Counted from the first letter of the stretch, positions 58,038 through 61,078 are shown. The stretch is 64,000 nt of DNA from an uncultured bacterium (GCA_937920515.1 CALEUG010000004.1:62001-126000); one strand, 5' to 3'. The notes: generated by a model not told the origin, from the letters alone. Program-made: numbers and translations.

Positions 58038-58071
58038 CTACAAAATTGTCGGAATCCAGGCAATTTTGTAG
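58038..58071. repeat. Perfect 11-base inverted repeat
   Basis: CTACAAAATTG and CAATTTTGTAG with a 12-base spacer, between hom and the sigma-54 promoter (54 bases upstream of the -24 box). No T-run, so a protein-binding site (an upstream activator or repressor) is as likely as a terminator. Confidence 0.6.
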
Positions 58072-58124: not shown

Positions 58125-58141
58125 TTGGCACGGTAATTGCA
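58125..58141 (+). promoter_or_regulatory. Sigma-54 (-24/-12) promoter
   Basis: TTGGCACGGTAATTGCA matches the consensus YTGGCACGrNNNTTGCW at every conserved base, with GG and GC separated by exactly 10. The start site should be near 58152, upstream of the ATG at 58179. It needs an NtrC-type activator, which is not encoded in this window. Confidence 0.93.
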
Positions 58142-58178
58142 CCTTAAAATGGCGAAACTCATGCAAAGGAGGTTAAAC

Positions 58179-59042
58179 ATGAGGCTTAAAAGAACGTTGA
58201 TGGCAGTGGCCATCGGGTTGTTAGCGGTTGCCCTGGTTGCTTCCTATTCCTTTGCTCAGGAGAATACCGAGCAGACCAGGGAAAAGGCGAAGGTCGAACA
58301 GAAGGGACAGGTTAAAAACCAGGAGCAGGTCCAGGTTAAAAACATGGTTCAGAACAAGGACGAAGAGCAGAATCAGACCAAGCAGAGAGAACAGACCAGA
58401 GAGCAGGAACAGGTCAGGGCCGAAGTCCAGAAAACCATAGAAAACCAGGCTGCTGAAAATTCTCAATCCCAGACACAGGTCCGGAACGAGATCCAGAACC
58501 GGGTAGAAATACAGGTGAACGAAGAGGGCCAGGTTGAAACCCGGCACCAGCTCCGGGTCGAGCACCAGGTACAGAACCAGGCTGTGGAGAACCAGATTTC
58601 CATTAACAAAGAAGGTGCGGGTAAACCCGAGATAGAGCACAATCTCCAGGTCAAGGCCAAAGAGCAGAATCAGACTAAAAATCAGATGCGGACCGAAGAA
58701 AGAAACAGGGTTCAGAATCAGGTCAGGGAACAGCCCAAGAACAGGGTGAAAAAAGGCGGACCTTTCGTGGATGAAGACGGAGACGGGATTAACGACTTAT
58801 ACCGGGACCATGATGGAGACGGAATTCCCAACTGCCAGGACCCGGACTGGACCGCTCCCGGGGACGGCACTGGATACAAGGGCTCTCCGGTAGGCAGCGG
58901 TTCCGGCCAGGCTTTGAACAGGTCCATGAACAGAAACATGACCATGTCCAGGCAGTCTTTCAGAATTCAGACCAGCCTGGCGGCCAGAATCTGCGACGGC
59001 ACCGGCCCAAAAGGTGCAGCGGCCAGGAAGGGAAACCGTTAA
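58179..59042 (+). CDS. Secreted Gln/Asn/Glu-rich protein with Ca-binding-type repeats
   Basis: 287-aa exported protein of unknown function. Signal peptide about 1-24 (VAIGLLAVALVASYSFA). Residues 25-200 are built almost only from Q, N, E, K, R, V and T, with recurring QxQxxNxxQ patterns (for example QEQVQVKNMVQNKDEEQNQ). Residues about 203-232 hold two DxDGDGxxD motifs like thrombospondin-3 Ca repeats, and a Gly/Ser/Met/Asn-rich tail ends with CDGTGPKG. Start chosen at ATG 58179 (AAAGGAGGT upstream); the track start 58137 lies inside the promoter. First gene of the sigma-54 unit. Confidence 0.8.
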   Translation: MRLKRTLMAVAIGLLAVALVASYSFAQENTEQTREKAKVEQKGQVKNQEQVQVKNMVQNKDEEQNQTKQREQTREQEQVRAEVQKTIENQAAENSQSQTQVRNEIQNRVEIQVNEEGQVETRHQLRVEHQVQNQAVENQISINKEGAGKPEIEHNLQVKAKEQNQTKNQMRTEERNRVQNQVREQPKNRVKKGGPFVDEDGDGINDLYRDHDGDGIPNCQDPDWTAPGDGTGYKGSPVGSGSGQALNRSMNRNMTMSRQSFRIQTSLAARICDGTGPKGAAARKGNR

Positions 59043-59064
59043 CCGGTGGGAAAAACAAAGGAAC

Positions 59065-59100
59065 GAACCGGGAAGGCAGGCCCGGTTCTTTCCCTGTTTT
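59065..59100 (+). terminator. Internal terminator or attenuator in the sigma-54 operon
   Basis: GAACCGGG and CCCGGTTC are a perfect 8-base inverted repeat with an 8-base loop, followed by TTTCCCTGTTTT. It sits between the first and second genes with no promoter seen after it, so partial read-through would set expression of the rest. Confidence 0.75.
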
Positions 59101-59169
59101 AAATGGCTGGCTCGATTCCTGTTAAACAGGAGTTAAATTGTAAATACCCGGATGCAAACAGGAGGGAAA

Positions 59170-60522
59170 ATGGCAAGTTTAAGAATCTGGTTAAAAAGTT
59201 ATATAATCGCCAGCGAAGAAATCACGAAGAAAATGACCGGAAAAAAGAACCTGGCCCTGGCGCTGAACTCAGTACTGCTGGTCCTTTTTCTGGCCGGCTC
59301 TTTGTCGGCCTCAACCGTTCAGTTCACGCTGGCCCACAACGCCACCAGCAACATCTTTCAATCATACCAGCCACTTTCCGACCAGCTGACCAACGTTTCG
59401 CTCTATTTTGGCGGTGATTCTGATAGCATCTCTCTTTATGGAGATTTCAACCTGAGTTTTCTGTATAAGTACTCAGGCCTGAGTTCGTTTGCCGGTAAGC
59501 TCGGAGCTGACTACCTGGTTCCAGCCGGCTCCAGAAGCGCCTTTTACTTCGCCCTGGAAGGAGAAGGGGTGCTGTTCCGAACCCTCTACGACTACTTCAA
59601 CCATGGCACCATTCGCCTGGTGGCCAACTTTAAGAGTTACCTTGATGCTTCCACCATTCTCCGGCTTGATACACTCAGCCAGTTGAGGGACTATCAGTAT
59701 TCCATCTTCGATTACTTTGCAGAAAACCTGACTTTATCGCTGGACCATTACTTTCCCTCTAAAACCACCATGAAAATAGAGGCCGGATACGGTTACAAGC
59801 TTTACTTTCACCCGGGGATAATTTCTGAAACCGGGGAAGAATTTCCGCCGGTTGTGGCGGAAGCTTCTTCGGTGCCAGGCTTCGGAACTCTGGCTTACCG
59901 CGGACCGGCCATCCTGCCCCAGCCTCCTGTGCAGGGTGGCCCTGGCGGCCATGGCGGTCCCGGACAGAATTATGAGAAGGGGGGGAGTTACAGCATCCGG
60001 GGAATACCCTACCAGACCATTTATTACACCGGCAGTCAAAATATCCAGGTTGTCTCCATCGGTGGCCTGCTGGCCCAGGGGCTGGGAGATCGCCTCGGTT
60101 TAAGCCTGAGCGCTCTCAAGCAGTGGAACCTCAAGGGCGAAAATCCCTTTGCTTCCAGCGATGAACTCTTCCTGGTTGAAAACCCGACCTATGACCAGTT
60201 CAGCTGGGAGGGTTATTCCCTGACGACCAAACTGACGGCCCTGCTGTCCGAGAACCTGAACGGTGCCTTTCAGTATGACTATTTTTCCCGGAAATTCCCC
60301 GGGATTGAAAGCCTTGATCTGGAAGGCACCAGCCTGGGAATTCCGAGGGAAGACAGGAGGCACCAGTTCAGCGCCCGGATTCAGCTGGACCTCAGAAAGG
60401 TTTCTTTTTTTATAAATTATTCCTATATAAAAAATACCTCCACCGACCCCTGGTTTACCTGGGACGGTAATGTTATCAGCGGAGGCCTGACCTGGAACCT
60501 GCAGGTCACTCCGTCGAAATGA
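59170..60522 (+). CDS. Predicted outer-membrane beta-barrel protein of unknown function
   Basis: 450-aa product. A cytoplasmic/basic start, then a hydrophobic signal (about 35-50: LNSVLLVLFLAGSLSA). The rest is rich in alternating aromatic residues (ISLYGDFNLSFLYKYSG, FVNYSYIKN) typical of transmembrane beta strands. A Gly/Pro-rich insert is at about residues 240-280. Start ATG 59170 has AGGAGGG 5 bases upstream; a later Met nearer the signal is possible. I do not recognise a named family. Coupled to the neighbours in the sigma-54 unit. Confidence 0.7.
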   Translation: MASLRIWLKSYIIASEEITKKMTGKKNLALALNSVLLVLFLAGSLSASTVQFTLAHNATSNIFQSYQPLSDQLTNVSLYFGGDSDSISLYGDFNLSFLYKYSGLSSFAGKLGADYLVPAGSRSAFYFALEGEGVLFRTLYDYFNHGTIRLVANFKSYLDASTILRLDTLSQLRDYQYSIFDYFAENLTLSLDHYFPSKTTMKIEAGYGYKLYFHPGIISETGEEFPPVVAEASSVPGFGTLAYRGPAILPQPPVQGGPGGHGGPGQNYEKGGSYSIRGIPYQTIYYTGSQNIQVVSIGGLLAQGLGDRLGLSLSALKQWNLKGENPFASSDELFLVENPTYDQFSWEGYSLTTKLTALLSENLNGAFQYDYFSRKFPGIESLDLEGTSLGIPREDRRHQFSARIQLDLRKVSFFINYSYIKNTSTDPWFTWDGNVISGGLTWNLQVTPSK

Positions 60523-60535
60523 GCGAGGTCCCGAC

Positions 60536-61078
60536 ATGAAAAATCATCAAACCAAGAAAATGATGGACGCAAAAACAAGGATTATGAGGCCTGTGCAGGA
60601 TAGGCGACCTCGCCTGCGAATTCTTTTAGCTTTTCTGTTCACCTTGCATCTGTCGCTGCTCCCGGCTCTGGCCCAGGACGCGTCGCCGGCCGAGAGCCAG
60701 GCTGAATCACAAACTCAAACCCGCCCTCATTTCTACGATGTCGACCGTGAGGTGACCATAGAAGGCCAGATTGAAGACCTCAGGTTTGAAAACAGGTACG
60801 AGGGCCGGGGGAATTTCCTGGTTCTTCTGGTCAAAGAAAAGGGCAGTGGCGAGCTGCTGGAAGTAGAAACGGCTCCGGCCTGGTTCTTCCGGAGTGATAT
60901 CCATAAAGGGGAGAGAATCCGGCTCACAGGCTCCCTGACTGAAGAAAGTAAAGACGGCCGGAAACTGGTTATGGCCAGGGAATTGAAGATTGGCAACCAG
61001 ACCATAACCCTCAGAGACCGCCGGGGCTTCCCTGCCTGGAGCCGCGGGCCGGGACGAAGGCGAGGTACTGCCTGGTAA
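60536..61078 (+). CDS. Small exported protein, possible OB-fold
   Basis: 180-aa protein. Arg-rich N-terminus and a signal (about 27-45: RILLAFLFTLHLSLLPALA), then about 100 residues of beta-rich sequence: REVTIEGQIEDLRF, NFLVLLVKEKGSGELLEVE, APAWFF, GERIRLTGSLTEESKDG. The C-terminal repeat is RDRRGFPAWSR. The pattern (hydrophobic strand, PAWF, 'G..I.LTGS') looks like the OB-like periplasmic proteins found in other anaerobes. 13 bases after the barrel gene. Family is known to me only as uncharacterised. Confidence 0.7.
   Translation: MKNHQTKKMMDAKTRIMRPVQDRRPRLRILLAFLFTLHLSLLPALAQDASPAESQAESQTQTRPHFYDVDREVTIEGQIEDLRFENRYEGRGNFLVLLVKEKGSGELLEVETAPAWFFRSDIHKGERIRLTGSLTEESKDGRKLVMARELKIGNQTITLRDRRGFPAWSRGPGRRRGTAW

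What the first reader, a model, noticed from the sequence alone, without database searches (positions are those of the whole stretch)
58125..61078. Sigma-54-driven operon of three secreted proteins of unknown function
A near-perfect -24/-12 promoter (TTGGCACGGTAATTGCA, 10 bases between GG and GC) precedes genes for a Gln/Asn/Glu-rich secreted protein with DxDGDG repeats, a predicted beta-barrel and a small OB-like exported protein. Strong sigma-54 use implies an environmental or stress trigger. The barrel may export or anchor the QN-rich protein, which could form a fibre or matrix. None of the three has a known role.
Basis: partly seen in the sequence, partly recalled or inferred. Interest (0 to 1): 0.8.

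Follow-up and report, generated by a model that had tools for sequence, protein, structure and literature searches.

The report
Private sigma-54 switch for envelope proteins
Three exported proteins of unknown role in an uncultured Aminicenantes bacterium belong to a widely conserved, apparently undescribed gene module that its own sensor kinase and sigma-54 activator appear to switch on, probably in response to a stress felt at the cell envelope.

Summary
TTGGCACGGTAATTGCA is one of two perfect -24/-12 sites in the genome, which has rpoN. The three genes recur together in relatives as the effector half of a module: secreted DxDGDG protein, outer-membrane barrel, exported OB-fold protein, histidine kinase, NtrC-type activator. 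Here the kinase-activator pair lies on another contig. All 24 Aminicenantales loci examined have two dyads (ACAAWWTTGT) about 85 and 65 bases upstream of the promoter; in this genome the tandem occurs only here. The same element precedes unlinked DUF2202 ferritin-like genes in sister genomes. Barrel and kinase are both present in 67 of 142 genomes and both absent from 61. A strong hairpin follows gene 1 at nearly every locus, so 'three-gene operon' needs qualifying. Similar clusters accompany gene 1 homologues in KSB1, Calditrichota, Ignavibacteria and Chlorobiaceae. The long Gln/Asn-rich stretch is specific to the genus, so fibre formation is unlikely to be the conserved function. Trigger and molecular role remain inferred: an envelope (metal or redox) stress response that works like ZraSR-ZraP.

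The parts
58040..58069 (+). Tandem dyads ACAAAATTGT and GCAATTTTGT, 20 bases apart: predicted enhancer (upstream activating sites) for the NtrC-type activator
   Evidence: Only place in the genome with at most 2 mismatches, backwards-pattern control 0; present 82-88 and 62-68 bases upstream of the promoter in 24/24 Aminicenantales loci, null 7/12000
58125..58141 (+). -24/-12 sigma-54 promoter TTGGCACGGTAATTGCA
   Evidence: Perfect consensus; one of two in the genome; conserved in 35/42 class loci
58152..58152 (+). Predicted transcription start (12 bases past the -12 GC); not measured
   Evidence: Inference from sigma-54 promoter geometry
58165..58173 (+). Shine-Dalgarno AAAGGAGGT of gene 1
   Evidence: Sequence
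58179..59042 (+). Gene 1 (G1): secreted 287-residue protein; signal peptide 1-26, Gln/Asn/Glu-rich 27-195, paired DxDGDG block 196-235, conserved CDGTGPKG basic tail
   Evidence: homologues
59052..59100 (+). Intercistronic hairpin (core GAACCGGG/CCCGGTTC at 59065-59088) with T tract: partial terminator or mRNA 3'-end stabiliser
   Evidence: MFE -44.9, z -3.6; a hairpin below -15 kcal/mol follows G1 in 97% of 38 loci versus 2-33% after the other module genes, with unrelated sequences in different families
59170..60522 (+). Gene 2: outer-membrane beta-barrel, conserved start with SD AGGAGG and a long signal-peptide n-region
   Evidence: AlphaFold2 model m39c38305cd5d; PDB matches are OM barrels, best AlgE, TM 0.48; family in 74/142 class genomes
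60536..61078 (+). Gene 3: exported OB-fold protein with C-terminal LRDxRGFPxW motif and basic tail
   Evidence: AlphaFold2 model m5ccd84f34a72; OB-fold PDB matches; weak MamS profile similarity far below cut-off

Best explanation
The trio is the effector arm of a dedicated sigma-54 two-component regulon. A membrane histidine kinase (in this genome at G000:C30:35392-36609) senses a signal outside the cytoplasm and phosphorylates its NtrC-type partner, encoded next to it. The activator binds the two dyads at 58040-58069 and drives sigma-54 polymerase at 58125-58141 (inferred from conserved architecture). Gene 1 is made in excess because a hairpin after it stops or stabilises most transcripts; read-through makes less barrel and OB protein (inferred). 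The secreted DxDGDG protein, the outer-membrane barrel and the exported OB protein then remodel or protect the envelope (inferred). Because related genomes put a DUF2202 ferritin-like gene under the same element, and some add a DUF4405 cytochrome-b-like gene, the most likely job is an envelope metal/redox stress response that works like ZraSR-ZraP (inferred; the circuit is much better supported than this role).
For: Regulatory circuit: rpoN; rare perfect promoter; site conserved in 35/42 loci; tandem dyads in 24/24 Aminicenantales loci and unique in this genome. HK and RR lie next to the trio in most relatives (of 32 loci with room: G1 27, OB 29, HK 23, RR 24). The own unlinked RR is 76% identical to the module RRs of two sister species and shares the HTH of the activators whose loci have the ACAAWWTTGT dyad, while other orders have another HTH and TTCGCAA-type dyads. 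Barrel and kinase co-occur: 67 both, 7 and 7 one only, 61 neither. Composite dyads+promoter element in the fetched 2.29 Mb: 31 distinct sites, 28 before G1 and 3 before DUF2202. Hairpin. Envelope location: signal peptides, barrel model, OB model. Metal/redox hint: DUF2202 genes with sigma-54 sites in 10/12 loci; DUF4405 beside the module.
Against: No transcript, binding or phenotype data. DUF2202 is absent from this genus, and its presence is only weakly associated with the barrel (10 of 14 genomes, p 0.16), so the metal/redox reading is indirect. The kinase sensor stretch matches no Pfam domain in Aminicenantia. Outside the class the strict sigma-54 site is found at only 5 of 25 loci. The hairpin could fully separate gene 1 from genes 2-3. 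Co-occurrence was not corrected for phylogeny, and the fetched loci were chosen because they hold these genes.
Confidence: 0.7

Rival explanations
1. The barrel is a dedicated exporter or anchor that brings the gene 1 protein to the surface, where it forms a Ca-dependent layer, fibre or matrix; the OB protein is a periplasmic helper.
For: Barrel and G1 are neighbours across phyla; excess G1 implied by the hairpin; [quoted passage not shown] one KSB1 barrel has a sub-threshold SlipAM hit.
Against: The long Gln/Asn-rich stretch is genus-specific; no sorting or translocation domain was found in the barrel; fold matches are generic porins and AlgE at TM 0.48; the SlipAM hit is below cut-off.
Confidence: 0.25
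2. The module is an electron-transfer or metal-handling conduit across the outer membrane, with the barrel as porin sheath and DUF2202, DUF4405 and ferredoxin-like partners as redox parts.
For: DUF4405, DUF2202 and polyferredoxin genes beside the module in some genomes; DUF2202 co-regulated.
Against: No haem or Fe-S motif in the trio; this genus lacks DUF2202 and the redox partners are absent at most loci.
Confidence: 0.15
3. The sigma-54 promoter controls gene 1 only; the hairpin is a full terminator and genes 2-3 are a separate unit that merely stays next to it.
For: Strong hairpin with T tract; 127-base gap between genes 1 and 2; a sigma-70-like match at 59179.
Against: That match lies inside gene 2 and such matches are no more frequent than in shuffles; the gene order is conserved over several families; in G256 and G255 a sigma-54-like site lies directly before the unit that holds the barrel (L169, L168).
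Confidence: 0.2

Closest known systems
PrsK/PrsR (PEP-CTERM/EpsH regulatory system; PMC1569441)
   Same: Histidine kinase plus NtrC-type activator, a -24/-12 site with an upstream activator motif, target genes that encode secreted surface proteins; found by comparative genomics.
   Different: Gene 1 has no PEP-CTERM signal; the activator is below the PrsR cut-off (375.8 vs 502.6 bits); here the targets include a barrel, an OB protein and in relatives DUF2202, usually in one cluster with the regulators.
ZraSR-ZraP (zinc/envelope stress; PMC4987338)
   Same: HK plus sigma-54 response regulator controlling an exported protein; few targets.
   Different: Gene 1 is not ZraP-like; the activator is below the ZraR cut-off (406 vs 760 bits); barrel and OB partners have no counterpart.
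Thrombospondin type 3 / bacterial TSP3 repeats (PF02412, PF18884)
   Same: DxDGDG calcium-loop pattern in gene 1 homologues.
   Different: Only 7-11 bits against a cut-off of 25; a distinct invariant block DxDGDGINDxxxDxDGDGIPNxxDPD.
DUF2202 (PF09968) and DUF4405 (PF14358)
   Same: Recurrent partners; DUF2202 shares the regulatory element in three sister genomes.
   Different: Not in the window; no paper in the searched library mentions DUF2202.
MamS (NF040991)
   Same: Weak profile similarity to gene 3 and its homologues (22-28 bits).
   Different: Cut-off is 200 bits, so not a member.

Membership tests
Sigma-54-dependent promoter | -24 GG and -12 GC with 10 bases between, close to TGGCACG-N4-TTGC | tested here: met
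   Perfect match at 58125-58141
Sigma-54-dependent promoter | rpoN in the genome | tested here: met
   Sigma54_DBD, C15:112963-113439, E 2e-62
Sigma-54-dependent promoter | Upstream dyad sites for an NtrC-type activator | tested here: met
   Tandem dyads 58040-58069, conserved in position
Sigma-54-dependent promoter | Transcription start 12 bases past the -12 GC and loss of transcription without rpoN | not testable with these tools
   Needs RNA work
PEP-CTERM/Prs system | Target protein carries a PEP-CTERM sorting signal | tested here: not met
   No such match for P0001; the tail has no transmembrane stretch (sequence)
PEP-CTERM/Prs system | Regulator passes the PrsR model TIGR02915 | tested here: not met
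   375.8 vs 502.6 bits
PEP-CTERM/Prs system | Exosortase (EpsH) in the genome | tested here: met
   TIGR02602, 124.7 bits, C20:18244-18942; not linked to this locus
ZraSR-ZraP | Regulator passes the ZraR model | tested here: not met
   406 vs 760 bits
ZraSR-ZraP | HK and sigma-54 response regulator controlling an exported protein | tested here: inconclusive
   Supported by gene order, co-occurrence and shared dyads; control itself not tested
Outer-membrane beta-barrel | Signal peptide and closed antiparallel barrel of strands | tested here: met
   Model with about 16 strands, pTM 0.80; matches to solved OM barrels. Prediction only
TSP3 repeat protein | Passes PF02412 or PF18884 | tested here: not met
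   Homologues below cut-off; P0001 itself not listed
MamS | Passes NF040991 | tested here: not met
   22.3 vs 200 bits

The most novel reading that the evidence does not exclude
A previously undescribed, multi-phylum envelope system: a private sigma-54 two-component circuit that deploys a secreted DxDGDG protein through or onto its own dedicated outer-membrane barrel, with a co-regulated ferritin-like protein in some lineages; in effect a new kind of surface-assembly or envelope-defence machine.
Probability: 0.25. Interest if true: 0.82.

Novelty: new variant of a known kind. Interest (0 to 1): 0.64.

Why it matters
It replaces 'three unknown genes behind a good promoter' with a defined regulon that has a sensor, an activator, a mapped candidate enhancer and a small target list, with related clusters in several phyla of mostly uncultured bacteria. 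It gives a first functional handle on four uncharacterised families (G1 DxDGDG protein, the barrel, the exported OB protein, DUF2202). The enhancer-promoter element looks specific enough to predict further members and can be tested in a surrogate host. Finding the inducing signal would make the role of all of them testable.

Tried and rejected
Pfam and NCBIfam on the trio gave no family above cut-off. Sequence search of solved structures with both profiles gave nothing significant. MamS, TSP3, SlipAM, BBP2_2 and TIGR03016 similarities are all below cut-off and were not used for filing. LysRS, PriB and RPA as top structural matches of gene 3 reflect the shared OB fold, not function. Plasmid search with the barrel: none. 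Adjacent-kinase hypothesis for this genome rejected: the kinase-activator pair is on contig C30. Dyads were sought upstream of the other listed sigma-54 sites of this genome: no tandem pair elsewhere. Literature searches for DUF2202, Aminicenantes with sigma-54, DxDGDG with barrel: nothing relevant; the library lacks most subscription journals. Hairpin covariation by base-pair counting was dropped because the stem sequences of different subgroups do not align.

Full report
What was checked. In the 2.56 Mb assembly only two sites match TTGGCACGNNNNTTGCW perfectly, this one and one upstream of a TonB-like receptor gene. The genome encodes rpoN. Gene 1 starts at ATG 58179, behind AAAGGAGGT; gene 2 at 59170 behind AGGAGG, a start conserved in sister species; gene 3 at 60536. 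None of the three passes any Pfam or NCBIfam cut-off. The nearest named relatives are Candidatus Saccharicenans, an Aminicenantes lineage.

The trio is part of a larger module. Searching relatives with each protein found the three together in several genomes of the class. Reading the neighbourhoods showed a recurrent order: sigma-54 site, secreted DxDGDG protein (G1), barrel, OB protein, histidine kinase, NtrC-type response regulator with Sigma54_activat and Fis HTH domains. Of 32 class-level loci with enough flanking sequence, 27 have G1 before the barrel, 29 the OB gene after it, 23 the kinase and 24 the regulator. The barrel occurs once in most carriers, in 74 of 142 genomes of the class. 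In this genome and several sister species the kinase-regulator pair is not next to the trio: here it lies on contig C30.

Assigning the kinase and activator. The C30 kinase matches the module kinase profile over its full length at 309 bits, against 138 bits or less, over the kinase domain, for all others. The C30 regulator is 76% identical to the trio-adjacent regulators of two sister species and about 62-66% to those of other Aminicenantales. Presence of barrel and of the full-length kinase agrees in 128 of 142 genomes (67 both, 61 neither; Fisher p 7e-24, not corrected for phylogeny). Most genomes without linkage still have both.

The enhancer. Upstream of the promoter lie two dyads, ACAAAATTGT and GCAATTTTGT, at 58040-58069. 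In all 24 examined Aminicenantales loci two such dyads occur about 85 and 65 bases before the promoter, 20 bases apart (shuffled sequence: 7 in 12000). In this genome the tandem pattern occurs nowhere else with up to two mismatches, and the reversed-pattern control finds none. In other orders of the class the dyads are of a different type (TTCGCAA/TTGCGAA), and the regulator's HTH differs as well. This is what a private activator-enhancer pair should look like; binding itself was not tested.

A trans target. DUF2202 (ferritin-like) genes sit beside the module in some genomes. Of 12 DUF2202 loci examined in the class, 10 have a -24/-12 site just upstream. In three Aminicenantales genomes these promoters carry the same tandem dyads at the same distance; in the two of them where the module was also found, it is on a different contig. 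Scanning all 303 fetched loci (2.29 Mb) for the composite element gave 31 distinct sites: 28 before G1, 3 before DUF2202, none elsewhere (the loci were selected for these genes, so this shows consistency rather than genome-wide specificity). DUF4405 cytochrome-b-like genes with a second OB gene are a further partner in some families. DUF2202 is absent from Saccharicenans.

The hairpin. Directly after gene 1 a strong stem with a T tract precedes gene 2 (59052-59100; MFE -44.9, z -3.6 for the gap). Hairpins below -15 kcal/mol follow G1 in 97% of 38 loci, compared with 33% after the barrel, 2% after OB, 19% after HK and 24% after RR. Their sequences differ completely between families, so the structure is kept while the sequence turns over. 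The likely meaning is more gene 1 product than barrel and OB product, by partial termination or by 3'-end protection; this is inferred.

The proteins. In G1 the conserved part is the paired loop block FxDEDGDGINDxxxDxDGDGIPNxxDPDW and, in many members, a C-terminal CDGTGPKG..R tail. The long Gln/Asn/Glu-rich region (20% Q, 11% N, 16% E in residues 27-195) is conserved within the genus at 64-88% identity but short or missing elsewhere, so it is a lineage elaboration. Gene 2 is modelled as an outer-membrane barrel (pLDDT 84.7, pTM 0.80) whose best solved matches are AlgE and porins at TM 0.48 or less, which fixes the fold class and not the substrate. Gene 3 has a well-modelled OB fold with OB-fold matches only.

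Spread. A scan of 85,462 species genomes with the G1 block returned homologues in KSB1, Zixibacteria, Calditrichota, Ignavibacteria, Chlorobiaceae, Bacteroidota, Krumholzibacteria and Marinimicrobia. Where a barrel homologue had 3 kb on both sides, 15 of 18 loci outside the class have both a kinase and an NtrC-type regulator nearby. There the kinases are longer, and one of three examined has an sCache_3-type sensor above cut-off. The strict sigma-54 site is found at 5 of 25 such loci, so regulation outside the class is less certain.

Mechanism and rivals. Shown by sequence: conserved gene set, promoter, enhancer architecture, co-occurrence, hairpin. Inferred: phosphorelay, binding, stoichiometry, localisation, trigger. 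The most likely role is an envelope metal/redox stress response that works like ZraSR-ZraP (PMC4987338). In circuit logic it also resembles PrsK/PrsR control of PEP-CTERM proteins (PMC1569441, PMC9850573), but it is a member of neither: activator scores fall below both cut-offs and G1 has no PEP-CTERM signal. Sigma-54 control of the cell exterior is a known theme (PMC3162934).

Verdict. Observation confirmed, interpretation partly supported, and enlarged: a conserved, apparently undescribed regulon with defined parts, function still inferred.

Noticed in passing
G000:C10:26982-26998 (L003), C12:2398 (L004), C10:4156 (L022): Other strong sigma-54-like sites in this genome precede TonB-like receptor genes with a carboxypeptidase-regulatory-like N-terminus, suggesting a wider sigma-54 regulon of outer-membrane proteins.
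   Followed up: no
G000:C15:69605-69621 (L005): A one-mismatch sigma-54 site precedes a type IV pilin-like gene, downstream of an NtrC-type regulator gene.
   Followed up: no
G000:C20:18244-18942 (L303): EpsH/exosortase-like gene above the TIGR02602 cut-off, so a PEP-CTERM-type sorting system may exist in this genome.
   Followed up: no
G000:C4:38718-39087: A second stretch similar to gene 3 (43% identity) broken by stop codons: a possible decayed paralogue.
   Followed up: no
L086:2982-3755, L086:3752-6145: Beside one module: a polyferredoxin with eight 4Fe-4S motifs and a tandem pair of exported proteins of unknown family.
   Followed up: partly
L224, L200, L218: In some KSB1, Calditrichota and related genomes G1 homologues carry two to four DxDGDG blocks and occur in two copies around the module.
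   Followed up: no
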